Notes under the pieces: model-generated
Told to the model about the DNA's origin: nothing
Databases searched by the model: none
Seen by the model: only the letters and a program-made list of their open reading frames with translations
Part shown: positions 21,055-38,066 of the stretch, one piece after another
How positions within the stretch are numbered: the stretch's first letter is position 1
Layout of the letters: the number at the start of each line of letters is the position of its first letter
NCBI GenBank assembly: GCA_013140975.1
Contig: JABFRV010000032.1
Span: forward strand, 1-38,066
Direction: 5' to 3'
Length of the DNA stretch: 38,066 bases
Source: Saprospiraceae bacterium
GTDB lineage: Bacteria; Bacteroidota; Bacteroidia; Chitinophagales; Saprospiraceae
Translations under genes and position numbers: made by a program

Positions 21055-21163
21055 GTTGAAAACTATTCAGGCTATTCTATTTGCCGATAATTTATAATAT
21101 GATATATAACATTAAATGTGATTTGTTTATAACCAACTCCTTGTAAATTGACGTTTAAAAATA

Positions 21164-21577
21164 CTAACTCTTTCCTTCTGCTACTTTATGCAGTAGGTCT
21201 ACCTCCCTTTTTTGTCTCTCATAAAGATCCTTGTACAGTGCAACGTCTGCTTTTAAACGTTCCACCTCTTCGATTGAATATCTGACGGGTTCGTAAACAC
21301 CATTATTCTTGATTACTTCCAACATTGGTGTTATAAAGTCTTTCTGCAGAAGTATAGATATTTCAATGATATCATAACATGTACCATAGCTAGGATTCCT
21401 AAGCCTGTGGCTCATTCCCTGACGCCCAATCTTAATAATATCACTTATTTCTGTTTGTGTCCAGGTAGGATGATTACTGATATACTCATGAATCATTTGA
21501 CCAAGGTCAAGTCCATACTTAATGTTTACTTTCTTTTCAGCTTTAACTGATACTCTTTCTTTTTTAGTTTTTGCCAT
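21164..21577 (-). CDS. Phage-repressor-like helix-turn-helix protein
   Basis: 137 aa from the ATG at 21577 (MAKTKKERVSV); a further ATG at 21592 is possible. After a basic N-terminus, residues about 25-75 form a helix-turn-helix (LGQMIHEYISNHPTWTQTEISDIIKIGRQGMSHRLRNPSY), in which TQTEISDIIKIGRQGMS is the likely HTH. The C-terminus is a coiled coil (VERLKADVALYKDLYERQKREVDLL), probably for dimer formation. It faces the early operon across 117 bp with a symmetric repeat, the layout of a lysogeny-type switch. Similar HTH-coiled-coil proteins are frequent on Bacteroidota mobile elements. Confidence 0.75.
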   Translation of the reverse strand: MAKTKKERVSVKAEKKVNIKYGLDLGQMIHEYISNHPTWTQTEISDIIKIGRQGMSHRLRNPSYGTCYDIIEISILLQKDFITPMLEVIKNNGVYEPVRYSIEEVERLKADVALYKDLYERQKREVDLLHKVAEGKS

Positions 21578-21601
21578 ACTCCTGATTTTCAATAGTTAAT
21601 A

Positions 21602-21672
21602 CAATGATATAGCCATTTGACAAAAAAAATCGCAAATATTATATACATATATATCATTTAACTGTACATTTG
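21602..21672. promoter_or_regulatory. Divergent control region: operator-like repeat and two promoters
   Basis: Perfect 9-bp inverted repeat AATGATATA (21603-21611) and TATATCATT (21650-21658). The left arm overlaps a near-consensus minus-strand -7 box (TATCATTG, 21609-21602, one mismatch). The right arm ends 7 nt before the exact plus-strand box TACATTTG (21665-21672). An AT-rich tract lies between the arms. A dimeric repressor could cover both promoters. Confidence 0.5.
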
Positions 21673-21693
21673 CAACATTAAAAGATACGTATT

Positions 21694-22002
21694 ATGAGTG
21701 ATTCAGGACGTAGGTCCGCAATTGCAAGAGCTTTGAGACACGATAAGAGTCTTCCAACTGATAAGTACAAACGTGTTACTCCTCAGCATCAAAACAACAT
21801 CCTTAAATGGGTAGTCTCCAATAAACCCGAATATGCATTGATAGATAGAAATCCTCCAGAAATTTTAAGAAGAGAACTTATAAAAAGAGGGCTCTCAATT
21901 CAATTATACAAAAGGATACTACTTAACGAGACAATCGTAACCGTGGACGAATTATACAACATTTCTGAAGTATTAAAATGCAAAGCAAAAGACCTTTTAT
22001 GA
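21694..22002 (+). CDS. Small DNA-binding-like protein (XRE-like C-terminus)
   Basis: 102 aa, first gene of the rightward early operon. The C-terminal half reads LRRELIKRGLSIQLYKRILL followed by TVDELYNISEVLKCKAKDLL. This resembles the second half of XRE/Cro domains, where a helix precedes a TVDxLxxIAxxLxCxPxDLL helix. The N-terminus is basic (MSDSGRRSAIARALRHDKSL). It could be a Cro-like or early regulatory protein. It sits 22 nt downstream of TACATTTG. Its stop overlaps the next ATG by 4 nt (ATGA). Family assignment is tentative. Confidence 0.65.
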   Translation: MSDSGRRSAIARALRHDKSLPTDKYKRVTPQHQNNILKWVVSNKPEYALIDRNPPEILRRELIKRGLSIQLYKRILLNETIVTVDELYNISEVLKCKAKDLL

Positions 22003-22184
22003 GCATTTACAACTTGAATCAATTGAAAGCAAAGTTGAAAACATTTAAGAATCATCTTAAGTGCTTAGTTCTTTCAAGTGCATTCAGTAATGATGATAAG
22101 GAACATCTAAAGGAGTATTACAATAAAAAAATAGATTATACACGAACTCAAATCTTAATTTATGATCCTAAATATACTGGATAA
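21999..22184 (+). CDS. Small hypothetical protein
   Basis: 61 aa (MSIYNLNQLKAKLKTFKNHL, then a charged helix with NDDKEHLKEYYNKKIDYTRT). The ATG at 21999 overlaps the previous stop as ATGA, which fits coupled translation better than the ATG at 21978. Predicted as a short helical hairpin. No known motif. Confidence 0.55.
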   Translation: MSIYNLNQLKAKLKTFKNHLKCLVLSSAFSNDDKEHLKEYYNKKIDYTRTQILIYDPKYTG

Positions 22185-22365
22185 TCAAGTATATAATTCT
22201 ATTGGATTGATAGGTAGATTCATGATTAGTGGACGTGTGTTATATGGTATTGATGAAGCTCGTGAATCATTTGAGGCCGAATGCAGTAAACTACAGCCAG
22301 GACAAAAAGTTTCCTTATGGTTTTCTAATCCATTACCAAAAAAAATAGCCGAATGTAAGAGTTAA
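22162..22365 (+). CDS. Small hypothetical protein
   Basis: 67 aa from 22162, overlapping the preceding gene by 23 nt. A later in-frame ATG at 22222 (MISGRVLYGIDEARE) is also possible and removes the overlap. It contains GRVLYGIDEARESFEAECSKLQPGQKVSLWF, which looks like a small alpha/beta fold. It lies 7 nt upstream of the replication gene, within the early operon. Function unknown. Confidence 0.5.
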   Translation: MILNILDNQVYNSIGLIGRFMISGRVLYGIDEARESFEAECSKLQPGQKVSLWFSNPLPKKIAECKS

Positions 22366-22372
22366 ATAAAAT

Positions 22373-24874
22373 ATGTCAACAACAACTATCTATTTCGAAA
22401 AAATTACTCAAGAAATTGGGTTTAATCCTAACACTGACTTTGGTCTTTTCGATCCATTACCAGATGAATTAAATAGTAAACTTAAAAAGCCATTACTAGA
22501 ATCTGATAAAGATGGTAATGTTATTTGGAATATAATGGATCTTAATGGCAACATCCGGACGATGGATGTAAAGGAAGATGTAAAAAGTAAAATTAAATAT
22601 AAGCCGATTCAAATTATTAGGCTTGCAGATCCTCCAGATCCAAAACAAAAATATAAAGGTATTAGAGTTGGGCAGAGTGTATGGCCCTGGATAAGCTCAG
22701 AAATTGTTCAGCTATATAAGAAAAAGACAAAAGTTAGAAGATTAATATTGACGGAAGGATATAAGAAAGCTTTCGTTGCCTGCAAAAAAGGACTTGTTTG
22801 TATTGGTATTCCAGGAATCACAGTTTGGAAGGATAAAGAAGCAACTGAAGTATTCAATGATATAAAACTATTCATTGATGCATGTCAAGTTGAAGAAGTT
22901 CTATGCTTACAAGATGCAGATGCAATGACAATTAAATGGGAACAAGATAAGGATTTATATAAACGACCTGCAAACTTCTACACATCTGTAAAACTCTTCA
23001 GATCGATGATGCGTGATTGGTGTAGTGCGTTATATTATGCGCACATTAACACTGAGTCTAAATTTAAAGGAATAGATGATTTATTACTTGGCATGCCAGA
23101 CAAATCTATTAAAATTTGCAAAGAACTCAACAGCAGCTCAGGAAATACAACATATATCACCCGATATGATGTTACGAATATGTCTAACACTAATGTTCAA
23201 CAACTATTTGGTATTCACGCGTTCGCACAAGAGTTTTATGATAAGTATGAATTTTACATTGGAGTTGAAGAATTTATATATCGAAATGGTGTATATCAAT
23301 ATGATGTAGATAAAGGTGAAATTATTTATCTACAATGTGGCGAATCGAGCCAATTTGTAAGGATAATGTCTGACTATTATATGAAGGCTACGCAGCCAAC
23401 ACCAACAGCATTTATTAAAAACACGTTACTACCTACGAAGAAAGATGATATCAGAGTTATGTTTAAAAAGCAGAAAAAAGATGTTGTTGATAGAATCATT
23501 TACGACATCCCCTTTTATCATGGTTTCTTTAATGAGCCTGGGCACATAAGCTATAGGCAGTATATTCCTTCGCTTGATGAAAATAATTTTACGACACTTT
23601 GGTATAACCGCTATATGAAACTTACTCATAAGCCAGTTTTAGAAGATGTAACATTAGAAGACATTCCTATCTCGATTAAATTTATAAAACACATTTTTGG
23701 AGGGCACGATGTACCATATAAAGGAAAGATTATTAAGGGTTATGAATTGGGATTAGATTACATACAGTTGCTATATCTAATGCCTAAGCAACCACTACCT
23801 ATTGTTTCCTTGCTGTCTGCAGAAAATCAAACTGGTAAAACTAAGTTTTGGGGTTGGATGTGTGCGATATTTCAACAGAACGCTAAGATAATTCCTCCTG
23901 CAATGCTTACTGGTGACTTTACAGAATACTTCATGAATGCATTACTAGTTGTAATCGATGAAGCACTTTTCAACAAGAGGGAGACGATGGAAAGGGTGAA
24001 AGGACTAACAACTTCAGATTCCAATATGGTTAATGGTAAACATGTCAAGGAATCAGAGCAATCTACTTTCTTAAAGGTTGGACTTTCTACTAATAATATT
24101 AATGATTTTGCTATTATTACCAAACACGACCAACGATTCTGGCCTATTGATGTACCTGTTATTCCGGATGAAGATTATGTAATTGACTTCTTTCCAAAAC
24201 TATGTGATGAAATACCTAAGTTCTTAACTTACTTATTAAAGCGTTCAATGTCGACCGATAAAGATGACGATAGAATGTACTTTTCTCCAGAGGTCAGACA
24301 TACTAAAGCCCTTGAACGTGTAATTAAGGGATCAAAGCCAAGTAATGAAATTCTAATTGAAAGCGCAATTAGAAATTATATGGTTGAGTCTGGCCGATTC
24401 GAAGTTGAACTTTCTAAGAAAGACATTAGAGAACTTACAGAAGAGCGTTCATTACAATTAAATACAGTTACTTGGATTCTAGAAAATAAAATGGACAAGA
24501 AACCTCATCCATATAGCAAGCGATACAAATTTTATAATATTGATATTGGGGATGATGTCACACAAGACAGAATCAACGTAGTAATTAAAAGCACTGAGCC
24601 TTTTACATTTCATATCAATGACTTCTATACGCTTGAACAAGTAGTTGAAATTTTTGATATTGATAAGTTTGTTCTTAATGAGGAGGAACATTTAATCACT
24701 GAAAAATTCAAGAGAGGTATTAGTGCAACGCTGTTTTTTGAAAACCATTATAAAACTCGTAAAGAGCCTTGCACATTTGAGGAATTCGAGGCTATATATA
24801 ATTCTTGCTCAACATTCATCGAGTTCAATGTTAGGTTTACAGACTTTACCATTCAAAAATCTTTACCATTTTAA
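22373..24874 (+). CDS. Virus/plasmid replication protein: TOPRIM plus superfamily 3 helicase
   Basis: 833 aa. Residues about 75-240 look like a DUF3854/TOPRIM region. LILTEGYKKA carries Glu128, IGIPGITVWKD a following strand, LCLQDADA carries Asp181 and Asp183, and KGIDDLLLG ends it. Residues about 470-600 are an SF3 helicase (DUF5906 type). Walker A is SAENQTGKT (482-490), Walker B LLVVIDEA (Asp529, Glu530), motif C FLKVGLSTNN and an arginine-finger candidate DQRFW. A C-terminal winged-helix-like region follows. This architecture serves as primase-helicase in satellites, phages and plasmids. I see no separate catalytic primase (AEP) motif. It is central to a five-plus gene early operon. Confidence 0.88.
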   Translation: MSTTTIYFEKITQEIGFNPNTDFGLFDPLPDELNSKLKKPLLESDKDGNVIWNIMDLNGNIRTMDVKEDVKSKIKYKPIQIIRLADPPDPKQKYKGIRVGQSVWPWISSEIVQLYKKKTKVRRLILTEGYKKAFVACKKGLVCIGIPGITVWKDKEATEVFNDIKLFIDACQVEEVLCLQDADAMTIKWEQDKDLYKRPANFYTSVKLFRSMMRDWCSALYYAHINTESKFKGIDDLLLGMPDKSIKICKELNSSSGNTTYITRYDVTNMSNTNVQQLFGIHAFAQEFYDKYEFYIGVEEFIYRNGVYQYDVDKGEIIYLQCGESSQFVRIMSDYYMKATQPTPTAFIKNTLLPTKKDDIRVMFKKQKKDVVDRIIYDIPFYHGFFNEPGHISYRQYIPSLDENNFTTLWYNRYMKLTHKPVLEDVTLEDIPISIKFIKHIFGGHDVPYKGKIIKGYELGLDYIQLLYLMPKQPLPIVSLLSAENQTGKTKFWGWMCAIFQQNAKIIPPAMLTGDFTEYFMNALLVVIDEALFNKRETMERVKGLTTSDSNMVNGKHVKESEQSTFLKVGLSTNNINDFAIITKHDQRFWPIDVPVIPDEDYVIDFFPKLCDEIPKFLTYLLKRSMSTDKDDDRMYFSPEVRHTKALERVIKGSKPSNEILIESAIRNYMVESGRFEVELSKKDIRELTEERSLQLNTVTWILENKMDKKPHPYSKRYKFYNIDIGDDVTQDRINVVIKSTEPFTFHINDFYTLEQVVEIFDIDKFVLNEEEHLITEKFKRGISATLFFENHYKTRKEPCTFEEFEAIYNSCSTFIEFNVRFTDFTIQKSLPF

Positions 24875-24883
24875 TCTTAATTT

Positions 24884-25672
24884 ATGAAAAAAGTATTATT
24901 ACTTCAGATAGCGCTTAATTATGTAAACCCTAAAAACTATTCAGGTTGGGAAGGAAAGTTAGAGGGATGCTTACATGATGCATCGAAAATGTTTGATATG
25001 TTGATTTCTTTACAGAAAATTGAAATTGTTGATTTTTGTGAACTAACTAATGAACAAGCTACTGTAGCAAACTTTACTGATTTATTAAAACGATTTTTAA
25101 CCCTAACAAGTGCTGAGAAACTAATAATTACTTATTCTGGTCATGGTGGCCAGGTTAAGGACAGAAACAAAGATGAAACTGATGGTCTTGATGAAACGTT
25201 TTGCCTGTATGATGGACAGGTTATAGATGATGATATATATAAAATGATTAACGCTTACGGAAGTATAAACAAAGAAGTAATTCTTTTTGTCGACTCTTGT
25301 CATTCCGGAACAATTTCCAGGGCAGAAAGATTAGGATTTTTAACATTGACTCAAGTTGATAAAGATCTAAACAAAAAAATCTGCCCAAGAGACATAAGCT
25401 TACTTTCAAGATCTCATTCTATATTCAAGAAAAGTCGAATTTCACAGAAGGATAATAAAATACCTCTTATATGCTTTTCTGCGTGTCAAGAATATCAATA
25501 TTCATATGACACTCCTAATGGAGGACTTTTCACAAAAGCACTTTGCGAAGTAATTAAACCAGAACTTAAGTATGAACCGTTGTTACTTAAAGTTATTCCA
25601 AAAATTATTAAGCTTCAAAAACCCAGGATAACTTATCGGAATACAATAATTAATAAGCAAATTTTTAGCTAA
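24884..25672 (+). CDS. Metacaspase (caspase-family cysteine peptidase)
   Basis: 262-aa peptidase C14 p20-type domain. The N-terminal strand and GCLHDASKM (28-36) match the metacaspase GCxxDA motif. The catalytic His87 is in YSGHGGQ and Cys139 in VDSCHSGT. An acidic pocket segment DETDGLDETFCLYDG suggests Arg/Lys specificity, as in metacaspases. FSACQEYQYSYDTPNGGLFT is the typical closing strand. No signal peptide, so it acts in the cytosol. It starts 9 nt after the replication gene in the same operon, an unusual neighbour. It might mature element proteins or act on the host cell; neither is shown. Confidence 0.9.
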   Translation: MKKVLLLQIALNYVNPKNYSGWEGKLEGCLHDASKMFDMLISLQKIEIVDFCELTNEQATVANFTDLLKRFLTLTSAEKLIITYSGHGGQVKDRNKDETDGLDETFCLYDGQVIDDDIYKMINAYGSINKEVILFVDSCHSGTISRAERLGFLTLTQVDKDLNKKICPRDISLLSRSHSIFKKSRISQKDNKIPLICFSACQEYQYSYDTPNGGLFTKALCEVIKPELKYEPLLLKVIPKIIKLQKPRITYRNTIINKQIFS

Positions 25673-25688
25673 CTAAATAAATCTCTCG

Positions 25689-26021
25689 ATGAAGACAATT
25701 GCAGATATTGACAATTTAATTGAATCCAAATTAAATAAATATTCAAGTTCTAAAGCCAGCAGGAAAACTCAGATTTCTAATGAACTTGAGTTACTTAGAA
25801 AAGCCAAAATATATTTAGAAAGCCGGCCTACGCCAAGTATAGTAAAAGAAAATTATATGCGATTGCTTGATAATATAGAAAAGATCAAACAAGGATTTTG
25901 GGATTACTGTCAACAGAATGGTATCAGTGAGTATAACCCAGTCATAAAGAATAAATACTACTCCAATCGTGAACTTCAGAAGCTAGAATACCAAAGGAAA
26001 TTTTTCGAAATTATTATTTAA
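25689..26021 (+). CDS. Helical hypothetical protein
   Basis: 110 aa, mostly charged helix (IDNLIESKLNKYSSSKASRK, QISNELELLRKAKIYLESR, NYMRLLDNIEKIKQGFWDYC). No signal peptide and no known motif. It lies 16 nt after the metacaspase gene in the early operon and could be its partner or substrate, but nothing in the sequence proves that. Confidence 0.6.
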   Translation: MKTIADIDNLIESKLNKYSSSKASRKTQISNELELLRKAKIYLESRPTPSIVKENYMRLLDNIEKIKQGFWDYCQQNGISEYNPVIKNKYYSNRELQKLEYQRKFFEIII

Positions 26022-26037
26022 ATATAAACTCTTTACA

Positions 26038-26478
26038 ATGAAAACAATTTTTTTATTAAACCACGCTGATGCAATCGCTAGAAGACTTTCATTCTCAGCA
26101 GTAATTATTACAACAACGCTTCTTCTTTTACTTTCTAATTACTTCAGCTGTCAGCCTCAGGAAGCAGAATCTTTGCCTCAGACTTCATCTACAGGATTAA
26201 ATTCAAGGTCTGCACTACCAGTTCTTAAACTACCAAAACTAGACACAACATACAGACCTATAATGTGGGGATCACAATTAAAACCGATTCCAGGAATAAC
26301 AATCAAAGGAAGTAATAAAAAATTCCCTCCATATTGGTTTACTAAAGTGTATGCGGACAACCTTGTTAAACCATCCAATTATCAGCAAGATGGACTAAAT
26401 GAAAGAGTAGCGTTTGCAGATTCAGCATTGATTACTAATTCTGATACATTTTATATATGTCGCAGAGTGATAAAATGA
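26038..26478 (+). CDS. Membrane-anchored or lipoprotein-like hypothetical protein
   Basis: 146 aa. A basic N-terminus is followed by a strong hydrophobic segment (residues about 21-34, VIITTTLLLLLSNYF) and then a Cys (SCQPQEAES) that could be lipidated, although the -3 Tyr is atypical for a lipobox. The rest is polar and rich in Pro and Thr (LPVLKLPKLDTTYRPIMWG). Exported part likely. It ends overlapping the next gene as ATGA. No family recognised. Confidence 0.6.
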   Translation: MKTIFLLNHADAIARRLSFSAVIITTTLLLLLSNYFSCQPQEAESLPQTSSTGLNSRSALPVLKLPKLDTTYRPIMWGSQLKPIPGITIKGSNKKFPPYWFTKVYADNLVKPSNYQQDGLNERVAFADSALITNSDTFYICRRVIK

Positions 26479-26964: not shown

Positions 26965-27612
26965 TTAAAAAGAATACTTCAGACTTACTGAAATCTCAGT
27001 TGTAGAATTTTTTACATTGATTACAGATGGGAAGGCTGATCCAGCAAAACTGCTGAAGCTTACTGTTGACATTAAGTCATCAGCATCTGGCCAGTCATAA
27101 TCAAATACTTCAAAAACATAATTTCCTGCAACTATATTAAACTGAAGGTTATCAAATGAAACTACTTGACTTACTGGTGTATCAGAGTTTACAGATGTAG
27201 AATGCTCTTTTAGCGTAGATCCTGCTTTTTTTATTGAAACAAACAAATCAGGGCCAGTTGAAAAATCCCAACTAACACCGGTATTATCAGTTGTAGGCCA
27301 TTTAAGAACTTTTATACTAGTAATTATAATAGATTTAGGAGTTAGAATTGTGCCACAGTCAGAACCACTGTAACCAGGAAGACAATTGCATAATCCATTA
27401 ATACATGTTCCCCCATTTTTGCAGCTTATATTCACACATGGATCAACTTTGGTTTCGCAAAACTTACCAAAATATCCAGGAGGACATTTACAAACTCCAG
27501 CTTCACAGAATCCTCCATTTTGACAAATTACCCCCTCACATGGATCTTCATCTTTAGAACAAGAGGACACGAAGAACATTACCATTAATAAGCTTACAAT
27601 TGTTGTTTTCAT
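26965..27612 (-). CDS. Lipoprotein with two EGF-like repeats
   Basis: 215 aa. The signal peptide ends in a lipobox (VMFFVSSCSKDED), so it is an outer-surface or periplasmic lipoprotein. Two EGF-like modules follow, each with six Cys. The first is CEGVICQNGGFCEAGVCKCPPG..CE and the second CVNISCKNGGTCINGLCNCLPG..CG. The C-terminal 120 residues are beta-rich (DLFVSIKKAGSTL, NYVFEVFDYDWPDADDLMS) and resemble a C2/PKD-like sandwich. It may mediate surface binding and looks like cargo within the element, since neither neighbour suggests such a role. A -7 box lies 13 bp upstream. Confidence 0.85.
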   Translation of the reverse strand: MKTTIVSLLMVMFFVSSCSKDEDPCEGVICQNGGFCEAGVCKCPPGYFGKFCETKVDPCVNISCKNGGTCINGLCNCLPGYSGSDCGTILTPKSIIITSIKVLKWPTTDNTGVSWDFSTGPDLFVSIKKAGSTLKEHSTSVNSDTPVSQVVSFDNLQFNIVAGNYVFEVFDYDWPDADDLMSTVSFSSFAGSAFPSVINVKNSTTEISVSLKYSF

Positions 27613-30399: not shown

Positions 30400-30669
30400 A
30401 TGCTCAACAAGAAGAAAAGCAAGCAACGCAAGAACCCTAAGATCACAATGTCCCAAGATTGCTCAGCTGCAATCATGAAGCTTCGGAAGTTTTTCGATTC
30501 CTACAGCGCATCTGAAGCTGATCAGGAGCTTTGGGATATGTTTCATCACTCCATGATCTGTCATCAGCGTAATGATATGACGCCTCAGGAGCGTGATGAT
30601 CATTTCTTTTTCTATACCAAGCTCAAGGAATTGATTAAGAGTGCAGCGATAGTTGTAGGAACAAAGTAA
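30400..30669 (+). CDS. Small hypothetical protein behind a structured leader
   Basis: 89 aa from 30400 (MLNKKKSKQRKNPKITMSQD), or 73 aa from the ATG at 30448. The body is helical and charged: MKLRKFFDSYSASEADQELWDMFHHS and ERDDHFFFYTKLKELIKSAA. It resembles, from memory, short single-gene proteins on Bacteroidota conjugative or phage elements with a FYxxLxxLI C-terminal helix. A strong terminator follows 10 bp later, so this is a one-gene transcript. Function unknown. Confidence 0.6.
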   Translation: MLNKKKSKQRKNPKITMSQDCSAAIMKLRKFFDSYSASEADQELWDMFHHSMICHQRNDMTPQERDDHFFFYTKLKELIKSAAIVVGTK

Positions 30670-31656: not shown

Positions 31657-31694
31657 ACATAATATGATATGTGTAACATATTATGTTATATTTG
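31657..31694 (+). promoter_or_regulatory. Operator-like repeat abutting a -7 box
   Basis: Inverted repeat ACATAATATG (31657-31666) and CATATTATGT (31677-31686), 10 bp apart, a spacing that puts both arms on one face of the helix. It touches the exact -7 box TATATTTG (31687-31694). The predicted start at about 31700 coincides with the GTG of the next gene, so repression by its own product is plausible. Confidence 0.55.
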
Positions 31695-31698
31695 TGCT

Positions 31699-31965
31699 GT
31701 GAAATTACTTCAACGCCTGAGTAAAAAGGACCTATGCACAATTTTCGGTCTTGTATCGAGAAGTGGATGGATCAATTATCCTGAATTAAGAAGAGGTTAC
31801 TTCACAAATCCTATATTAAAGAAGTTAGGAATTACACCAGGTGAATATAAATTAATTCGAAGGTTTGACATGCGTCAATCCCTGGTAATAGTGAACTTAC
31901 TAGGAATAAGCGCTGAGGAGATTTCTGTATTATATTCTCCTGGGGAATCAAAGACAGCGGAGTAG
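31699..31965 (+). CDS. Small regulator-like protein ending inside a tRNA gene
   Basis: 88 aa from GTG at 31699, placed almost at the predicted transcription start (leaderless); a longer frame from the ATG at 31669 would overlap the promoter. It is basic and helical: LLQRLSKKDLCTIFGLVSRS, LRRGYFTNPILKKLGITPGE and YKLIRRFDMRQSLVIVNLLG. A DNA-binding role is possible given the operator upstream, but I do not recognise a canonical HTH. The stop codon TAG (31963-31965) lies within the first ten bases of the tRNA-Met, an unusual overlap. Confidence 0.55.
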   Translation: MKLLQRLSKKDLCTIFGLVSRSGWINYPELRRGYFTNPILKKLGITPGEYKLIRRFDMRQSLVIVNLLGISAEEISVLYSPGESKTAE

Positions 31966-32028
31966 AGCAGTTGGAAGCTCGCTTGGCTCATAACCAAGAG
32001 GTCATAGGTTCGAATCCTATCTCCGCCA
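31956..32028 (+). tRNA. tRNA-Met-like (anticodon CAT), A1:C72 mismatch
   Basis: 73-nt cloverleaf. The acceptor pairs at positions 2-7 (GCGGAG/CTCCGC) with an A:C mismatch at position 1-72. D-arm TAGAGCAGTTGGAAGCTC. The anticodon stem CTTGG/CCAAG has loop CTCATAA. Variable AGGTC. T-arm ATAGG-TTCGAAT-CCTAT. The anticodon stem lacks the three G-C pairs of an initiator, so an elongator Met or an Ile-CAT (lysidine) tRNA is more likely. CCA is not fully encoded (ACCG). It sits inside the element, overlaps a CDS and is followed by a strong terminator. Confidence 0.88.
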
Positions 32029-32051
32029 CCGATAGATAGTTGGACTAATAC

Positions 32052-32566: not shown

Positions 32567-32941
32567 ATGAATCAATCAGAATTATTAAGTTCAGCCTTAG
32601 AAAACGTTTTCAAGTCTCAAGAAGCTAAAAGTAAATTGGAAGCACTAATTAATTCATCTCGGAACGTTGCGCTTCAAAAAGAGTTTAAGGCGTACAAAGT
32701 AGCTAATAAAAAAATTAGCGACATAATTTCAAAATTGTTTTTAGACCTGTTAAAATCAACAATCCGCCCCTCTATAAAACCACAAGAGTCAGACTTTTCA
32801 ATTGCATTTCCATTTCCATTTCCAGGAAGCAAGGCAAAAAAACCAACAGCTAAAAAAAGACCCTCTAATAAGCAATCTACAAAGACTAACCTTAAGAATT
32901 CTAAAGTAGGAAAGCCACGCAAAACAAGTGTGTCAAGATAA
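32567..32941 (+). CDS. Helical protein with basic tail
   Basis: 124 aa. The N-terminal 70 residues are helical (LLSSALENVFKSQEAKSKLE, KKISDIISKLFLDLLKSTI). A short Phe-Pro-rich stretch (SIAFPFPFPGSK) and a strongly basic, Lys/Ser/Thr-rich tail (KKPTAKKRPSNKQSTKTN) follow. The tail would bind nucleic acid or sit in a virion interior. No homologue recognised. Confidence 0.6.
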   Translation: MNQSELLSSALENVFKSQEAKSKLEALINSSRNVALQKEFKAYKVANKKISDIISKLFLDLLKSTIRPSIKPQESDFSIAFPFPFPGSKAKKPTAKKRPSNKQSTKTNLKNSKVGKPRKTSVSR

Positions 32942-32971
32942 TCAGCTCAATGTATAACCTAATAATACTTT

Positions 32972-33478
32972 ATGGCATTCACAGGACGCTCAATATACAT
33001 AGATGCTGAATGGTATATTGGTGGTCATATTTTCTTAATTGGATATGCCTACTCTAAGTACGAATTCGGGCAGCTCTATGATGGCGCTCTAACCAAAGAA
33101 CAATTTCTCAAAAAGTTGAGAAATGTTAAATACATCTTCTTTTACGGTCCCGATATCGGAATCATTGAAAAATATTTTGATATCGATTTGCGCAATAGAT
33201 ACATATGTGTTAATCTGCTTCGCATTTTTCGGAAAGTATTACAATTAACTTCTTTCAAGTTAGCGCATGTTGAACAAAAGTTTGGCATCGTTAGAAAGCA
33301 AGTTGAATACAAGAAAAACATTTTTGCAATATTCAACGATTGGAAAAAGCACGATAAAAGAAAACGTATTCTTAAATACAATGAAGAAGATGTTATTAAT
33401 CTACTGAGGCTCTGGAGAAAAGTTCGTTCCAGAAATAAAATTACTAATTATTATCTAATCCAAAATCAACTAAAGTAA
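32972..33478 (+). CDS. DEDDy 3'-5' exonuclease (RNase H-like, DnaQ/YprB type)
   Basis: 168 aa. The first strand has IYIDAEWYIGG with Asp11 and Glu13 (DxE). YIFFYGPDIGIIEKYF carries Asp61. The C-terminal motif YNEEDVINLL carries Tyr136 and Asp140 (YxxxD), so all four acidic residues and the Tyr of a DEDDy enzyme are present. CVNLLRIFRKVLQLTSFKLAHVEQKFG corresponds to the middle of YprB/RNase_H_2 domains. A proofreading or nucleic-acid-trimming role for the element is likely. It is short, a bare catalytic domain. Confidence 0.75.
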   Translation: MAFTGRSIYIDAEWYIGGHIFLIGYAYSKYEFGQLYDGALTKEQFLKKLRNVKYIFFYGPDIGIIEKYFDIDLRNRYICVNLLRIFRKVLQLTSFKLAHVEQKFGIVRKQVEYKKNIFAIFNDWKKHDKRKRILKYNEEDVINLLRLWRKVRSRNKITNYYLIQNQLK

Positions 33479-33547
33479 AATTGATTTTGTATTAAATACG
33501 TGTCTCCGAATAAGATAACTTCAGATTATAAATCAAAAATAGTTATC

Positions 33548-33778
33548 ATGAAAAGAAAAAGCAAATTTAATCTGCCGCACAAGTGGAGAATAATTAAAGA
33601 AACTACGACAGAGAAAATGCAAGAATGTATTAAATGTGAATGTAAAAAAGTAAGTGCGAAGCGTGAAGAAGGATGGAATACTAGATATTTTATAGGCAAA
33701 AGTGCCGTAATGAAAAAAGCTCCCTGGTGCTTATCTTCTAGTGTTCCGACTAAGCTCGAAGAGGCATTAGTTATTTAA
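33548..33778 (+). CDS. Small Cys-containing basic protein
   Basis: 76 aa from the ATG at 33548 (MKRKSKFNLPHKWRIIKETT); a GTG at 33500 would add 16 residues. CIKCECKK holds three Cys, and APWC near the end one more, so a small zinc site is possible. RYFIGKSAVMKKAPWC resembles a beta-hairpin. Not identified. Confidence 0.5.
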   Translation: MKRKSKFNLPHKWRIIKETTTEKMQECIKCECKKVSAKREEGWNTRYFIGKSAVMKKAPWCLSSSVPTKLEEALVI

Positions 33779-33800
33779 TTGTAGGCTCAATGTTTTTTGC

Positions 33801-33821
33801 TTTAATAAATGGTTTATTAAA
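33801..33821. repeat. 21-bp palindrome (9-bp arms)
   Basis: TTTAATAAA (33801-33809), TGG, TTTATTAAA (33813-33821). It lies 8 bp before the long hairpin. It could be an operator or weak terminator (AAAAAG follows, no T-tract). Confidence 0.55.
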
Positions 33822-33828
33822 AAGAGGT

Positions 33829-33975
33829 GGAGCGGAGGCAATAGCGTTGTTATATTGGTAGTAGTTTTTTGCGCAACGAATCCAATTTGAATTTCACTGA
33901 CGTTTAAATTCAAATCCAATTCTATGTTGCGCATTATTGTAACAACACTATTGCCCCCGCTCCTAATCTTTTTTG
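33829..33975 (+). ncRNA. Candidate structured RNA: 135-nt imperfect hairpin followed by T-tract
   Basis: Outer stem: 33829-33854 pairs with 33938-33963, about 24 of 26 pairs (GGAGCGG with CCGCTCC, then GGCAATAG with CTATTGCC, then GTTGTTA with TAACAAC), with two A/C mismatches. A large central bulge (33855-33870 against 33933-33937) precedes a second stem, GCGCAAC (33871-33877) with GTTGCGC (33926-33932). An asymmetric internal loop and a terminal 10-bp stem ATTTGAATTT/AAATTCAAAT with 11-nt loop complete it. TCTTTTTT follows at 33967. No frame runs through it. The rod with a central bubble is loosely 6S-like, and a replication or packaging signal is equally possible. Confidence 0.6.
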
Positions 33976-34015
33976 TCCATTCATTAAATCAAAAAACAAA
34001 TAACAACAAAGAATT

Positions 34016-34504
34016 ATGGATTATAATAATAAAATTGTAGAAGTAGCACTGTCAGAAGTAGGTTATTCAGAAATACCGAAAAACAGCAACAAAACTAAAT
34101 ATGGAAAATGGTTTGGCCTCAATGGAGTTCCATGGTGCGGTATTTTTGTTTCTTGGTGTTATTGGAAAGCTGGAATACAGTTGCCTAAGATAGGATTCTC
34201 AAATGGTTTTGCAGGATGTCAAACAGCAATGCAATACTTTTCTTCAAAAAAGCAAATTGTTGTGATTCCAAGACCAGGTGATTTGGCATTTTTTGATTGG
34301 AATAATGATAATCGTTTTGATCATGTAGGAATTGTATCATCATTCATATTTAATATTGGAACTAATCTAATGATTGATGTAGTCGAAGGCAACACTTCCT
34401 TAGGTAACTATTCAAATGGTGGCAAAGTAATGGAAAGGACTAGATATATAGTTAAACATAATATAGTTTTTGTAAGACCAAAAATATTATTAAATGCAGA
34501 ATAA
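34016..34504 (+). CDS. CHAP-domain peptidoglycan hydrolase (TIGR02594-like)
   Basis: 162-aa CHAP/NlpC-like amidase-endopeptidase. The catalytic Cys41 is in GVPWCGIFVSWCY, His103 in RFDHVGIVSS, and the polar third residue lies in VVEGNTS (Glu124 or Asn126). RPGDLAFFDW precedes the His, as usual. No signal peptide, so it would need a holin, lysis or virion packaging. The next gene overlaps its end by 11 nt. With the M23 peptidase beside it, it forms a two-enzyme wall-degrading cassette typical of virion entry or lysis. Confidence 0.86.
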   Translation: MDYNNKIVEVALSEVGYSEIPKNSNKTKYGKWFGLNGVPWCGIFVSWCYWKAGIQLPKIGFSNGFAGCQTAMQYFSSKKQIVVIPRPGDLAFFDWNNDNRFDHVGIVSSFIFNIGTNLMIDVVEGNTSLGNYSNGGKVMERTRYIVKHNIVFVRPKILLNAE

Positions 34505-35015
34505 AACATTTATTTATGGTGCAAGTGGGATAATAGCTTACTTGCTATTATCTTCATTTAAAAGCAAATCTAACTTAAGCAGTTCCGGATTCAATGCAAT
34601 AACCCTTGTTGATGATGTAATGCAGCTAAGGGGATGTGATCCCTTAGGTTGTGGAAATTTCGGAGCTTCACGTGGCTCACGAACGCATAATGGAATCGAT
34701 ATAGCATGCTTGTCTGGATCTAATGTTTATGCTCCATTAGATTGTAAAGTTATTAGAACTGTTGATCCATATGGAGATAGAAAATATAGTGGAATAGAAT
34801 TAGCTTCGCTAAATGATAATAATGATAAACTTACTATTATTATCATGTATATGAATCCGGATATATTTAAAATTGGACAAAATGTAAAAAGAGGAGATGT
34901 AATTGGCAGTTGTCAAGATATAACTGTCAAATACCCTGGAATTACTCCTCACTTACATATTGAAATGCTAATTAATAATTCTTATGTAGATCCAACAGAG
35001 TTGTTATTTTCTTAA
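34494..35015 (+). CDS. M23 metallopeptidase with N-terminal membrane anchor
   Basis: 173 aa. Residues 6-21 (FIYGASGIIAYLLLSS) form a membrane anchor or signal. The LytM domain has H65 and D69 in THNGIDIAC and H153/H155 in TPHLHIEM, the usual zinc ligands and base. VYAPLDCKVI and VKRGDVIGSC are also typical. It cleaves peptidoglycan cross-bridges in other systems. Start at 34494, inside the end of the CHAP gene, so translation is coupled. Confidence 0.85.
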   Translation: MQNKTFIYGASGIIAYLLLSSFKSKSNLSSSGFNAITLVDDVMQLRGCDPLGCGNFGASRGSRTHNGIDIACLSGSNVYAPLDCKVIRTVDPYGDRKYSGIELASLNDNNDKLTIIIMYMNPDIFKIGQNVKRGDVIGSCQDITVKYPGITPHLHIEMLINNSYVDPTELLFS

Positions 35016-35094
35016 CACTTGTTGGCATAGAATTTGTCTAAGTTTGGATTCAGACAGTTGATAACAATATTATTGTAATCAAAACAACCTAAAT

Positions 35095-35277
35095 ATGTCT
35101 AATAAGGCTAATCGCATCGACTACTCCAAAAAACTTTTGCGAAAAGAAACAAAGTTGCAACTATCAATTTTGTTTCAGACATGGATGTCAACAGATAAAG
35201 TTGAACCCAAGAGTTCCAAAAAAATGGCACGTACTTATGTAAAGTTGATCAAGATGATTGACAGGAATTTTACGTAA
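35095..35277 (+). CDS. Small basic helical protein
   Basis: 60 aa with many Lys/Arg (KKLLRKETKLQLSILFQTWM, SSKKMARTYVKLIKMIDRNF). It has one amphipathic helix and no clear motif. It lies between the M23 gene and a strong terminator. Possibly DNA-binding. Function unknown. Confidence 0.5.
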   Translation: MSNKANRIDYSKKLLRKETKLQLSILFQTWMSTDKVEPKSSKKMARTYVKLIKMIDRNFT

Positions 35278-35341
35278 GTGCTGACTATTTACTTACTATT
35301 TAAGTCTAATTACGCTACTTCTTAGGTGTAATTGAGATTAT

Positions 35342-35379
35342 AAAAAAGCAATGGCATAATTTTGTGTCATTGCTTTTTT
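35342..35379 (+). terminator. Strong, bidirectional-looking terminator
   Basis: 12-bp perfect stem AAAAAAGCAATG (35342-35353) and CATTGCTTTTTT (35368-35379), with a T-run after on plus and a matching run on minus. It separates the CHAP/M23 group from the LEA-2/transglutaminase group. It also shows that the TTG at 35362, inside the hairpin, is not the start of the next gene. Confidence 0.88.
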
Positions 35380-35397
35380 AATTTTAATCTCTTTATA

Positions 35398-35853
35398 TTG
35401 AGATCATTTAAATGTTTATTCGCCCTCGTCGGCATTGTTGCTGTTGGTTACTTTGTCGTAAAGCAATTTTCGAAACGTTTTGCTGATGGAATAAAGTTTG
35501 AAGGAGCCAATATTCAATGGGGCTCTATATCTGCAACCGGTGTTTCACTAACAATTAATCTTAAGTATCGCAACGAGAACAAAATTTCTGTGGCACTTTC
35601 TGATTTTATTGGAGCGGTTTTATACGGAAATCATCGCATAGCAAGAATTAAACTTTCACAAAGTATTATGCTCGATGGTAATAATCAAATTACCACAATT
35701 CCTATAAATGCAACAGTATCCTTCATCGATGTAGGATTTAATCTTGCAGATATGATAATAAATAAATCTTTTAAACAAGATTTAAATATTGTTGGAGATG
35801 TAACAATTGGTTCTATTACTTATCCAATAGATTACGCATTAATTAGCAATTAA
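35398..35853 (+). CDS. Membrane-anchored LEA-2-like protein, TTG start
   Basis: 151 aa from TTG at 35398; the in-frame TTG at 35362 lies inside the terminator and no in-frame ATG is near. Residues about 5-22 form a membrane helix (CLFALVGIVAVGYFVVKQF). The rest is a beta-sandwich reminiscent of LEA14/LEA_2 domains: SATGVSLTINLKYRNENKIS, then IPINATVSFIDVGFNL and VGDVTIGSITYPIDYAL. A LEA_2-like sandwich with one membrane anchor could be a virion membrane protein or a periplasm-facing element protein. Recognition is by pattern only. Confidence 0.65.
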   Translation: MRSFKCLFALVGIVAVGYFVVKQFSKRFADGIKFEGANIQWGSISATGVSLTINLKYRNENKISVALSDFIGAVLYGNHRIARIKLSQSIMLDGNNQITTIPINATVSFIDVGFNLADMIINKSFKQDLNIVGDVTIGSITYPIDYALISN

Positions 35854-35873
35854 CAATATAGTAAAAGTACTAT

Positions 35874-37562
35874 ATGATTCCAGCTACCAGATCTTATAAT
35901 TCATTAGTGCCAAGACCTGACTGGGTCATTGATGTTCACCATAAATATGGAAACACTCAAGACATAATTAATTCATTGATAAAAGCTTATCAGTATAATA
36001 ATTACCAGGCAAAAAGGGAAATGACAGATTTAGCTGCGGGGATAAAAGGCAACACTGATTATGATACCTTGTATAATACTTGGTTATACGTATTTAACAA
36101 GATTAATTACAAGAGGGATAATAATGGCAAAGAAATAATCAAAAATCCTGCGGTGCTTTACTATGTAGGATACGGTGATTGCAAGAGTTTTTCTCTGATG
36201 ATAGGTTCTATCTTATCTCATTTCAAGACCATTAAATGGTCATTCAGATTTGTTGCACAAAAAACTGGAGGAAATTACGATCATGTTTACGTAGTCGCAA
36301 AAATTGATGGCTACCAAAAAAATATAATTCTCGATGCAACATTATCTCAATTTGATTTTGAAGTACCGGGAATAACAAAAGCTAAAGACTATTCAATGAC
36401 AGAAATTATTCACATGCACGGACCTCGTTTTGCATATCTTACGAATGCTAAGCCGTCTATCGGAGAAATAAACCGCAATTCTCCCAAAAATGCTGTCAGT
36501 CCAAGAATCGATGTAACAAAGTGGACACAAGGTCAGTTAAAACTTCAATTACTTAAGAACCGCTACGCAATACGTCAAGCATATTATGGAGACGTTAATA
36601 ATGTATTCTCCAAAGCAATCTTTATGATTGACAATGCAATTAAAGGTGGTTTACAAAATTTCAACGTAAGCTCTGGAGTAATTGATCCTATTTACAATGA
36701 CTTAATCAGAAACATTTATTCTGCTAAAGAAAAGCACATTTCTCAAATTCAAATTATTGAATCAGCTTCAAATGCTGTTGGCATCAGCGGTAAAGATCGT
36801 TGGTCTGGATTATTGACATTTCCGGATCTTAAAAAATGTATTGATACATTTAAACCAGAAAAGGCAGATTCATTTTACAGATCATTCCATGACTTCGTAA
36901 CTTATTACGATGAAAAATCAGGACAAACTAGTTCTTACAAAGTATCTAGTCCTGAGTTCAGAGCATGTATAGATCAAGCTAAACTTGCTAAGTGGGCACG
37001 CAACAATATATTTGAAAAAGAAGATTTTAAGCGTGGTGCACTTTCAATGATGTATGAATTTGTAGACCAAGAAAACGAAGCTCGCTTAAATAGTATAGGC
37101 CAAACAAAGATGCTTTTTCATAAAAGCTCAATTGATGGCTTTAGTAGTGTATCTGGAATGGATAGAGAGAATGTTGCTCTGTATACATCCAATGGAATCG
37201 AGTACAATGCTGCACTAAATAAATTTCCAGAATTAAGTCCTAAATTTCATTTTGATGCTTTATCCGATGGCGTAAAATATAAAGGGCAACCTGGCATTAA
37301 TGAACCATTCATAACTGCAGCAGTAATTGTCGCAATTGGAACAGCTATTGCAAAAATTATTTCAGCTGTAAAGTCTGCAGGGCCTACCTATGAAAGTAAC
37401 TTATCGGCATTCACTAAGGGAAACTTAGGAGAATCTAGTAAGGCTTCTATTAATGACTTCAAAGAAGATATATTGACCTTAAGCAACTTGGGAACATTTG
37501 TTCCGATTGCTCTCGGAGGTGCTGCACTTGTATATTTTTTACTTAAAAAATCTAAAAATTAA
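35874..37562 (+). CDS. Transglutaminase-like protein with C-terminal membrane segments
   Basis: 562 aa. The N-terminal 160 residues hold a transglutaminase-like cysteine peptidase/transferase fold. Catalytic Cys103 is in GYGDCKSFSLMIG, His137 in NYDHVYVVAKI and Asp154 in ILDATLSQF. A long middle (about 200-480) is helical and unassigned. The last 80 residues carry two hydrophobic segments, FITAAVIVAIGTAIAKI and FVPIALGGAALVYFLL, plus a KKSKN tail, so it is probably anchored by its C-terminus. It may crosslink or cleave cell-wall or virion proteins. It lies 20 bp after the LEA-2-like gene and overlaps the next gene by one base. Confidence 0.75.
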   Translation: MIPATRSYNSLVPRPDWVIDVHHKYGNTQDIINSLIKAYQYNNYQAKREMTDLAAGIKGNTDYDTLYNTWLYVFNKINYKRDNNGKEIIKNPAVLYYVGYGDCKSFSLMIGSILSHFKTIKWSFRFVAQKTGGNYDHVYVVAKIDGYQKNIILDATLSQFDFEVPGITKAKDYSMTEIIHMHGPRFAYLTNAKPSIGEINRNSPKNAVSPRIDVTKWTQGQLKLQLLKNRYAIRQAYYGDVNNVFSKAIFMIDNAIKGGLQNFNVSSGVIDPIYNDLIRNIYSAKEKHISQIQIIESASNAVGISGKDRWSGLLTFPDLKKCIDTFKPEKADSFYRSFHDFVTYYDEKSGQTSSYKVSSPEFRACIDQAKLAKWARNNIFEKEDFKRGALSMMYEFVDQENEARLNSIGQTKMLFHKSSIDGFSSVSGMDRENVALYTSNGIEYNAALNKFPELSPKFHFDALSDGVKYKGQPGINEPFITAAVIVAIGTAIAKIISAVKSAGPTYESNLSAFTKGNLGESSKASINDFKEDILTLSNLGTFVPIALGGAALVYFLLKKSKN

Positions 37563-37762
37563 TGGCAAAATTTAAAAAAACTGGCCGACTTCGCAAGCGA
37601 GTTTCTCGTAATACTAGGCACAAACTAATAGCAACAGCAAAGCCTGATGGAGAACTTAAAATCACAAAATCTAAGTCCAATGCACAACGACTGAAGATTG
37701 TAAAAAATACTGAAGCTGAAGCAAGTTCTAAGATACCAAAGCACGAAAGTGTAGAGGAGTAA
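37562..37762 (+). CDS. Small protein with basic N-terminus
   Basis: 66 aa, beginning MAKFKKTGRLRKRVSRNTRH, then a Lys-rich linker and an acidic tail (EAEASSKIPKHESVEE). Its ATG overlaps the transglutaminase stop (TAATG). The Arg/Lys-rich head suggests nucleic-acid binding, and the acidic tail may balance charge. Unknown family. Confidence 0.55.
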   Translation: MAKFKKTGRLRKRVSRNTRHKLIATAKPDGELKITKSKSNAQRLKIVKNTEAEASSKIPKHESVEE

Positions 37763-37797
37763 ATTATTATTTCATCACAAAAAAAAATGTTAATACA

Positions 37798-38058
37798 ATG
37801 GCAACAAGAAAAAGATCATCGAGACGCTCCAGCACAACACGTCCTGCGCGCACTCGTAAATTTGGGAAAAAGACTTACACCCATGATTCTTGCTCCACCA
37901 CAAAAACTGGTGCAAGAAAAAAAGCGAAGTCAATTCGTGCAACTGGAAAAAAAGCACGCGTAGTAGGAAAGTGTGTGTATGTAGCTGGTTCTGCTTCAGC
38001 AGTTTCTGGCAAAAAACGCACTGTCAGACGCAAACGTAGAGTAACCCGAAGAAAATAA
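37798..38058 (+). CDS. Very basic small protein, DNA-condensing type
   Basis: 86 aa, roughly a third Lys/Arg. An N-terminal RKRSSRRSSTTRPARTRKFG tail and a C-terminal KKRTVRRKRRVTRRK tail flank a small folded core: KKTYTHDSCSTTKTGARKKA and ARVVGKCVYVAGS. The two Cys could form a disulfide. A short core with two basic arms is the look of a virion or nucleoid DNA-condensing protein. It ends 8 bp before the window edge, so the cluster continues to the right. Confidence 0.6.
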   Translation: MATRKRSSRRSSTTRPARTRKFGKKTYTHDSCSTTKTGARKKAKSIRATGKKARVVGKCVYVAGSASAVSGKKRTVRRKRRVTRRK

Positions 38059-38066
38059 TCTATGTG

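What the first reader, a model, noticed from the sequence alone, without database searches (positions are those of the whole stretch)
21100..38066. Probable integrated tailless-virus-like element without tail or terminase genes
From about 21.1 kb the gene content changes from core functions to a repressor-like switch, an SF3 replication protein, two peptidoglycan hydrolases, several single-anchor membrane proteins, a transglutaminase-like protein and small basic proteins. Most are unassignable. No portal, terminase, tail, integrase or transposase gene is visible in about 17 kb. Membrane-anchored proteins plus wall hydrolases plus DNA-condensing proteins is the set expected for a membrane-containing, tailless (double-jelly-roll type) phage. 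The capsid and packaging genes would have to lie to the right.
Basis: partly seen in the sequence, partly recalled or inferred. Interest (0 to 1): 0.78.

Follow-up and report, generated by a model that had tools for sequence, protein, structure and literature searches.

The report
Tailless prophage at chromosome's dif site
A bacterial chromosome carries what looks like a dormant tailless virus, inserted without a visible insertion enzyme of its own at the site the cell uses to separate its chromosomes; its relatives carry single-barrel or duplicated double-barrel candidate shell proteins, which could show how one major virus shell type arises from another.

Summary
The window is one contig of a Saprospiraceae-type genome. 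An element begins at a dif (XerC/XerD) site at 21,080, runs off the right end, continues in contig C27 and ends at an intact dif in contig C120 (at least 30.3 kb). A same-genus genome has the empty site; three relatives with dif on both sides measure 14.9, 15.5 and 34.3 kb. Candidate capsid genes lie just right of the window, in a block of conserved order across Bacteroidota and in IMG/VR (180 matching stretches; many circular 12-14 kb contigs). The transglutaminase-like gene is homologous to a structural protein of the orphan membrane phage SSIP-1. No integrase, terminase, portal or packaging ATPase was found. Two corrections: integration is at dif, and this element is not double-jelly-roll. 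Its second candidate capsid protein is single-domain; the first resembles vertical single jelly rolls. In two separate relative clades the second protein is duplicated internally (250-305 aa), and one such model matches PRD1's double-jelly-roll coat best. Single-to-double jelly-roll conversion thus becomes testable within one virus family. Virion, membrane and activity are inferred.

The parts
21080..21107 (+). attL: dif-like XerC/XerD site, left end of the element (its XerD arm is degenerate)
   Evidence: 2 mismatches to the dif consensus built from relatives; 0 expected in 100 shuffles. The intact partner (attR) is in contig C120:1036-1063.
21164..21592 (-). regulator-like gene next to attL, divergent from 21694
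   Evidence: Homologs beside the attachment site in relatives G200b and G232, and one in G534; no Pfam hit. The repressor role is inferred.
21694..22002 (+). small basic protein, possible antirepressor or Cro-like (inferred)
   Evidence: Homolog in G200b and in G534 (cluster 25); no Pfam hit.
22373..24874 (+). replication protein: DUF3854 + DUF5906 (primase / SF3-type ATPase)
   Evidence: Pfam 6e-8 and 2e-9, PHROG DNA primase 1e-10; 52% and 36% identity to genes in relatives' elements G200b and G232.
24884..25672 (+). caspase-like peptidase (Peptidase_C14), accessory
   Evidence: Pfam 7e-22.
26965..27612 (-). EGF-repeat lipoprotein-like accessory gene
   Evidence: Pfam EGF_2 9e-12; 34% identical gene inside the G232 element.
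31669..31965 (+). small conserved gene (family f24) upstream of the morphogenesis block
   Evidence: Family recovered in 27 ORFs of the loci in hand (some records appear twice under two ids).
32972..33478 (+). RNase_H_2-type 3'-5' exonuclease
   Evidence: Pfam 8e-14; 51% identical gene in the CP1 neighbourhood of G171.
34016..34504 (+). CHAP peptidoglycan hydrolase
   Evidence: Pfam 5e-10; PHROG endolysin 3e-25.
34494..35015 (+). M23 metallopeptidase
   Evidence: Pfam 3e-12.
35362..35853 (+). LEA_2 protein with N-terminal hydrophobic segment; first gene of the conserved morphogenesis block
   Evidence: Pfam LEA_2 8e-6; within 600 bases upstream of the TGase gene in 34 of 34 elements where both were found.
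35874..37562 (+). transglutaminase-like protein with two C-terminal hydrophobic segments; homolog of SSIP-1 structural protein gp34
   Evidence: tblastn 2e-4, SSIP-1 (two records of it) the only hit at E <= 0.1 among 50,697 phage records; profile 3e-20; Cys103, His137, Asp154 invariant in 7 of 7. The name transglutaminase-like rests on this motif pattern (recalled), not on a Pfam hit.
37562..37762 (+). small basic protein
   Evidence: Net charge +12 in 66 aa.
37798..38058 (+). very basic small protein, probable DNA-condensing (inferred)
   Evidence: Net charge +31 in 86 aa; family in relatives between TGase and capsid genes.
37921..38066 (+). 146-base overlap (one mismatch) with contig C27, which carries f37, CP1, CP2, M3 and further element genes
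   Evidence: gene order across the join matches G200b and G232.

Best explanation
The region right of 21,080 is a temperate, tailless, probably membrane-containing icosahedral virus integrated at the chromosomal dif site. No recombinase of its own is visible; host XerC/XerD most likely insert and excise it (dif flanks, empty site and circular relatives shown; Xer dependence inferred). A regulator beside attL holds it dormant (inferred). A primase/SF3-type protein replicates it (domains shown). The particle is built from two jelly-roll proteins encoded just right of the window: CP1 (252 aa) and CP2 (172 aa, single domain); fold predicted for relatives, role inferred. They are accompanied by anchored LEA_2 and transglutaminase-like structural proteins, and basic proteins condense the DNA (inferred). 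CHAP, M23 and a third wall enzyme open the host wall (domains shown, role inferred). Packaging runs without a virus-encoded packaging ATPase (none found in complete relatives; mechanism inferred). It belongs to a large Bacteroidota virus lineage distantly related to Salisaeta icosahedral phage 1. In two clades of that lineage CP2 is a tandem duplication with a predicted double jelly roll.
For: dif at 21,080 and intact dif at C120:1036 followed by selD. Empty site in same-genus G099, where the same flanking genes lie beside a dif. dif on both sides in G232, G377, G437; circular contig L098 with a dif-type site in its 77-base terminal overlap; dif-type site between right-end gene and regulator in G200b. 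The exact intact pattern occurs once each in 9 of 60 genomes searched, own included, and in none of the other 51; the reversed control gave 0. Five PF00589 matches in the genome, none in C45, C27 or C120. Rep, regulator and CP1 on one contig in G200b and G232. CP1 profile in 18 of 398 family genomes, 14 of 112 genera, own included; 180 IMG/VR stretches; 15 of 21 contigs tested have terminal repeats. Order complete in 27 of 28. TGase to SSIP-1 gp34. CP1 model (relative L094) pLDDT 81.7: best VIA hit SPV1 chain A, Z 7.5, 161 aligned, rmsd 4.2, and the first 22 of 50 rows are all viral capsid or scaffold proteins; best BFVD hit I1ZBH9, 211 aa, E 1.8e-4, prob 1.00, the length of SSIP-1 gp46. CP2-double model (relative L105) pLDDT 80.8: the five Foldseek PDB hits at E <= 1e-3 are all PRD1 coat chains, best 4.7e-5.
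Against: No virion, induction or expression data. CP1 fold match is weak in PDB Foldseek (none at E <= 1e-3; influenza hemagglutinin ranks first); VIA Z under 8 may be a common arrangement, and PHM, plant HDT and Kex2 chains reach Z 4.8-5.4. The PRD1 matches of the CP2-double model have low TM-scores (0.18-0.25) and 16-18 A rmsd, its pTM is 0.54, and its VIA list mixes capsids with unrelated beta proteins, mostly one half at a time (best Z 7.3). CP1, CP2 and f42 profile matches to SSIP-1 gp46, gp47, gp48 are individually within reversed-sequence noise, and hhalign did not rank gp47 first for single CP2. SSIP-1 has an ATPase and an integrase; this lineage shows neither. The right part is split over contigs, with an unread gap between C27 and C120 where an ATPase or recombinase could lie. 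The folds of single CP2 and of the window genome's own CP1 were not predicted. 51 of 60 genomes lacked the exact dif pattern.
Confidence: 0.8

Rival explanations
1. It is a large FLiP/PhiCjT23-type (Finnlakeviridae-like) ssDNA prophage with a double-jelly-roll coat, already a known kind in Bacteroidota.
For: PhiCjT23-like prophages sit between dif sites in Flavobacterium (passages of PMC9719478). The FLiP group lacks a packaging ATPase, reaches 17 kb and has possible Bacteroidetes prophages (passages of PMC5894146). G377 carries a Rep_1 rolling-circle-type Rep and its CP2 is double. Weak profile hits exist: TGase to FLiP gp09 E 0.005 and gp07 E 0.01 in 16 proteins, not followed up.
Against: No CP1 or CP2 profile match to FLiP MCP gp8, and the double CP2 family did not match it by hhalign. 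CP2 is single-domain here and in most relatives. Rep is DUF3854/DUF5906 here. TGase links to SSIP-1.
Confidence: 0.06
2. A domesticated or defective remnant that no longer makes infectious virus (or makes a nanocompartment or transfer particle).
For: No packaging ATPase found; element in several contigs; no activity data; in 10 of 38 elements one or more core genes are missing from my ORF calls, partly through contig ends or ORF choice.
Against: Block genes in window and C27 are open frames. Related circular genomes occur in viromes and one MAG. Same-genus genomes differ in presence: 3 of 9 carry CP1.
Confidence: 0.12
3. Two unrelated elements, or an assembly artefact, rather than one element crossing C45, C27 and C120.
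For: One mismatch in the 146-base overlap; gap between C27 and C120; a tRNA-Met lies inside at 31956-32030.
Against: G200b and G232 carry regulator, Rep, TGase, CP1, CP2 and the right-end gene family in one contig. In G232 all lie between two dif sites.
Confidence: 0.06
4. On the capsid question: the double CP2 is ancestral and single CP2 arose by loss of a half, so no single-to-double conversion happened in this lineage.
For: The domain tree is poorly resolved, and C-halves of the Aureispira-type doubles group with the L112 clade of singles at 94/88, not starred. Rooting is unknown.
Against: On the tree of other core genes doubles are two separate clades (100/100 and 99/99) and 30 of 36 labelled rows are single; two changes suffice. 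With that minimum, every rooting includes at least one change from single to double (my inference).
Confidence: 0.3

Closest known systems
[quoted passage not shown]
   Same: Homologous transglutaminase-like structural protein (gp34). gp46-gp47-gp48, all annotated structural, are in that order the top but weak profile hits of CP1, CP2 and f42. CP1's best viral structure hit has gp46's length. Described as membrane-containing with two capsid proteins, and 'single jelly roll?' (passages of PMC4958249, PMC6260650, PMC6356626).
   Different: SSIP-1 is 43.8 kb, with an annotated integrase (gp13) and structural ATPase (gp40); gp40 has no relative among the other ORFs in hand at E <= 0.1.
PhiCjT23 / FLiP (Finnlakeviridae) and FLiP-group prophages
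   Same: Tailless, Bacteroidota host; PhiCjT23-like prophages integrated at dif (passages of PMC9719478); no packaging ATPase in the FLiP group (passages of PMC5894146, PMC6260650).
   Different: ssDNA with double-jelly-roll MCP and rolling-circle Rep; 6.0-8.4 kb PhiCjT23-like prophages, FLiP 9.2 kb, FLiP-group contigs up to 17 kb (same passages). No convincing sequence similarity in the ten families tested.
Thermus phage P23-77 (Matshushitaviridae, Helvetiavirae/Singelaviria)
   Same: Two adjacent capsid genes, one small and one larger, single-jelly-roll type (passage of PMC4958249); VP17 appears in CP1's VIA list (Z 5.3).
   Different: P23-77 has an annotated putative packaging ATPase. No sequence similarity above noise: the best hit, f37 to the VP15 gene at 15.7 bits, is under the reversed-sequence maximum of 16.1.
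dif-integrating microviruses of Bacteroidetes (BMVs)
   Same: No integrase, dif-flanked proviruses (passages of PMC3091885).
   Different: About 6 kb, microvirus-type capsid protein (same passages); gene content not compared here.

Membership tests
dif-integrating mobile element (XerCD-exploiting) | Flanked by dif-like repeats, one side intact dif | tested here: met
   C45:21080 and C120:1036; both sides in G232, G377, G437.
dif-integrating mobile element (XerCD-exploiting) | Empty dif in a close relative at the same locus | tested here: met
   G099, same flanking genes, dif with 3 mismatches to the consensus.
dif-integrating mobile element (XerCD-exploiting) | No own recombinase | tested here: met
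   PF00589: 0 of 5 genome matches in the element contigs. The gap C27-C120 is unseen, and serine recombinases were not searched by a dedicated model.
dif-integrating mobile element (XerCD-exploiting) | Dependence on host XerC/XerD | not testable with these tools
   Needs a knockout or in-vitro assay.
SSIP-1-like virus | Homologous TGase-like structural protein | tested here: met
   (hhalign 98.3%).
SSIP-1-like virus | Homologous capsid proteins in same order | tested here: inconclusive
   Top ranks but sub-noise scores; hhalign first for CP1 and f42 at 5-6% probability, not for CP2; structure hit by length inference.
SSIP-1-like virus | Virion-associated ATPase gp40 | tested here: not met
   phmmer best E 0.27 outside SSIP-1; own element has an unread gap.
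Helvetiavirae / Singelaviria | Two vertical single-jelly-roll major capsid proteins | tested here: inconclusive
   CP1 model resembles SPV1 and other jelly rolls; single CP2 judged only through its duplicated homolog.
Helvetiavirae / Singelaviria | FtsK-HerA packaging ATPase | tested here: not met
   None by motif scan in four complete elements. In 11 of 15 circular IMG/VR genomes one gene has a P-loop; its one scanned representative (L117) is AAA_25 / DnaB-helicase-like. A second P-loop-like ORF in L197 and the genomes without a motif hit were not examined further; own element has a gap.
Finnlakeviridae / FLiP group | Double-jelly-roll MCP related to FLiP gp8 | tested here: not met
   CP2 here is single; no match of CP1, CP2 or double-CP2 profiles to FLiP gp8.
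Finnlakeviridae / FLiP group | ssDNA genome | not testable with these tools
   -
Caudoviricetes | Portal, large terminase, tail proteins | tested here: not met
   None in 20 element proteins scanned by PHROGs except wall-hydrolase hits labelled tail or head; not all small ORFs scanned.

The most novel reading that the evidence does not exclude
[quoted passage not shown] The lineage would then bridge the two capsid kinds that current taxonomy places in separate realms as independent inventions.
Probability: 0.45. Interest if true: 0.88.

Novelty: new variant of a known kind. Interest (0 to 1): 0.75.

Why it matters
SSIP-1 has been an orphan whose genome 'hardly shares any similarity' with GenBank (PMC6356626 passage). 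This lineage would give it a large set of integrated relatives, one in a record titled Aureispira sp. CCB-QB1 that could be tested. It would also be a dif prophage without visible integrase or packaging ATPase of up to 34 kb, against 6.0-8.4 kb for the PhiCjT23-like ones (PMC9719478 passage). Above all it makes an open question testable. PMC8812541 (passages) argues that double-jelly-roll coats did not come from fused helvetiavirus single jelly rolls, and ICTV 2025 split the realms on the ground of independent origins (PMC12714852 passages). Here single and duplicated forms of one protein occupy the same slot of one conserved gene block.

Tried and rejected
Single CP1 as query found no relative in viral contigs or in the phage collection; the L117 CP1 found none in the phage collection. 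The CP1 profile found nothing useful among PDB sequences (one hit, E 0.8), nor did the CP2 profile (four hits, E 0.96 or more). CP2-double against phages gave only E 0.7-0.9 hits to Enterobacter phages. The A5 (Aureispira-type TGase) scan of IMG/VR confirmed nothing; the A4 scan found three loci.

f37 to P23-77 VP15 looked exciting (E 1.3e-4 in 171 ORFs, position just before the capsid genes) but scored under the reversed-sequence maximum, so I rejected it. tRNA-Met at 31956 as an attachment site was dropped once dif was found. An early note said 14 circular IMG/VR contigs; the count is 15 of 21. A strict Walker-A scan missed the G232 Rep, so I repeated it with a looser pattern on ORFs of 120 aa or more.

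Direct N-half against C-half alignment of doubles was clear in 2 of 5 tested (G377 z 9.9, second L100 gene z 6.1), borderline in one (second L110 gene, 3.1), absent in two (G437 1.0, L098 -0.4). The singles-only profile found both halves at independent E <= 0.01 in 7 of 9 distinct doubles; the first L108 gene had 0.001 and 0.063, the first L110 gene failed.

Novelty searches in the open-access library: (FLiP, SSIP-1, Singelaviria, Aureispira, dif, jelly-roll and similar terms). The papers listed (at most 20 a call, of up to tens of thousands holding some of the terms) included no description of this family that I could see from titles, abstract openings and passages. Subscription papers and preprints are mostly not held, and Aalto 2012 (PMC3344969) was not held.

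Full report
What was checked. The window is the whole of contig C45 of a 3.97 Mb, 196-contig genome. Its right end overlaps the left end of contig C27 (12,465 b, L006) by 146 bases with one mismatch. Gene names tRNA nucleotidyltransferase and selD for the flanks are recalled from the sequences.

Boundaries. A dif-like sequence lies at 21080-21107, between the last host-like gene and the regulator-like gene; none is expected in 100 shuffles. The same motif flanks the element in G232 (34,300 bp between sites; the right copy fits the consensus fully), in G377 (14,880 bp) and in G437 (15,535 bp). That the right arm equals the E. coli XerD arm is recalled, not from a call. In the window's own genome, allowing three mismatches, the pattern occurs only at C120:1037-1061 (exact) and at 21081; selD follows in C120. 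In same-genus G099 the tRNA nucleotidyltransferase and selD matches lie about 1.4 kb apart with a dif between: the empty site. G200b has a dif-type site between the right-end gene and the regulator, as expected for a circularised or tandem form. L098 is a 16.5 kb contig whose ends overlap by 77 bases and hold such a site. The exact pattern was found once each in 9 of 60 genomes and in none of the other 51, G099 among them, so dif varies more than the pattern allows. The own element is thus 16,987 + 12,319 + 1,035 = 30.3 kb plus an unread gap between C27 and C120.

The block. CP1 (L006:667-1425) has relatives in 6 of 298 genomes of the order and, as a profile, in 18 of 398 of the family, 14 of 112 genera, own genome included. 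A TGase profile found 24 loci in named genomes, including Lacibacter cauensis, Bacteroidales, Paludibacteraceae, Winogradskyella and Lacinutrix, and 4 IMG/VR contigs. A CP1 sub-profile confirmed 180 IMG/VR stretches, of which 80 were kept (two of them from one contig). Of 21 contigs tested, 15 have terminal repeats and are 11.8-13.9 kb long. Across 38 chosen elements the order LEA_2, TGase, f37, CP1, CP2, M3 is complete in 27 of the 28 where all six were found. The exception, G421, looks circularly permuted: f37 and CP1 at the left, LEA_2 and TGase at the right end of the 20,000 bases fetched. Ten of 38 lacked one or more genes in my ORF calls, through contig ends, ORF choice (G198's CP1 was found) or real absence. 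The replication modules differ: DUF5906-type here, Rep_1 in G377, a DnaB-helicase-like AAA_25 protein in L117. A conserved capsid block with changing replication genes is typical of viruses (recalled).

Known relatives. The TGase-like protein hits only Salisaeta icosahedral phage 1 at E <= 0.1 among 50,697 phage records (gp34, annotated structural), confirmed by profile (3e-20) and hhalign (98.3%). CP1, CP2 and f42 profiles put gp46, gp47 and gp48 first, in order, but each score is within reversed-sequence noise; hhalign kept gp46 and gp48 first at 5-6% probability and did not find gp47. Independently, the CP1 model's best BFVD hit is I1ZBH9 (211 aa), with I1ZBI0 (256 aa) at rank 39. These lengths equal gp46 and gp47, so I infer that they are these proteins; the tool gave no names.

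Folds. The CP1 model (from L094; pLDDT 81.7, pTM 0.80) matches SPV1 chain A best by VIA (Z 7.5, 161 aligned, rmsd 4.2); the first 22 of 50 rows are viral capsid or scaffold proteins, later rows include PHM, HDT and Kex2. Foldseek against PDB is weak, with influenza hemagglutinin first. CP2 is 133-201 aa in most elements, 287-305 aa in G377, G437 and L098, and present as two adjacent 250-268 aa genes in L100, L108 and L110. All 79 CP2 matches found in loci L120 and later (the IMG/VR loci) are 157 aa or shorter. A profile made from singles only hits both halves at independent E <= 0.01 in 7 of 9 distinct doubles; direct half-to-half alignment is clear in 2 of 5. The model of a double (L105; pLDDT 80.8, pTM 0.54) shows two domains of about eight strands each, with low confidence in their relative placement. 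Its five Foldseek PDB hits at E <= 0.001 are all PRD1 coat chains, best E 4.7e-5, but with TM-scores of 0.18-0.25; the cellular double-jelly-roll DUF2961 protein 4kq7 is at rank 13. VIA aligns mostly one half at a time with middling Z.

Evolution. On a tree of the other core genes (38 rows, none dropped; G167b and L104 without CP2 unlabelled) the doubles are two separate clades, supports 100/100 and 99/99, and two changes explain the pattern; long branches are flagged, L108 with L110 among them. In the domain tree the halves fall among the singles of their own side of the family, with weak support (86/79). I read this as duplication inside the lineage, but loss from a double ancestor is not excluded.

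No packaging ATPase. By motif scan, in the complete elements G232, G377, G437 and L098 the only plausible P-loop is in the G232 replication protein. In 11 of 15 circular IMG/VR genomes one gene has a P-loop; the one representative scanned is helicase-like. SSIP-1's gp40 has no relative at E <= 0.1 among the other ORFs in hand. Integrases: five PF00589 matches in the genome, none in the element's contigs.

What is known. dif-integrating tailless prophages of Bacteroidota are known for microviruses and PhiCjT23 (passages of PMC3091885, PMC9719478), so the integration route is a known kind. The FLiP group (PMC5894146 passages) lacks an ATPase too; FLiP itself shares no convincing match (best TGase to gp09 E 0.005). 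I found no description of the present family in ten searches of the open library, of which I saw capped listings, abstract openings and passages, no whole paper.

Verdict. A real element, a member of a widespread virus lineage that I found undescribed, of a known morphological kind, with an unusual capsid variation that deserves testing.

Noticed in passing
window 24884-25672: A caspase-like (Peptidase_C14) protein is encoded right after the replication gene of the element.
   Followed up: no
window 31956-32030: tRNA-Met (cat) inside the element, 84% identical over 73 bases to a stretch of contig C15 of the same genome; no sign that it is the attachment site.
   Followed up: partly
window 30400-30669 and L006 12120-12386: Two small paralogous proteins sharing the stretch WDMFHHSMIC at different places of the element; function unknown.
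   Followed up: partly
L074-L077 and L078-L079 (G516 contigs C44 and C91): One genome carries three CP1 matches, two of them on one contig, so several elements of this kind co-reside.
   Followed up: partly
L013, L018 (G200 contigs C97 and C118): A same-genus genome carries two different elements: one ends at an intact dif, the other shows a dif-type site at a circular or tandem junction.
   Followed up: partly
window 26965-27612: EGF-repeat lipoprotein-like gene inside the element with a relative inside the G232 element.
   Followed up: no
model of L094 CP1: BFVD rank 3 is an uncharacterized protein of Bacillus phage AR9, and three unnamed entries with neighbouring accessions (A0A141HS21 to HS23) score well; possible further jelly-roll relatives.
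   Followed up: no
L006 10766-11149 and L036 646-972: A small gene family (f10) sits next to the intact dif in several elements (G232, G200a, G377, G437, own); two copies here and in G200a. Possibly linked to Xer-dependent integration or excision.
   Followed up: partly
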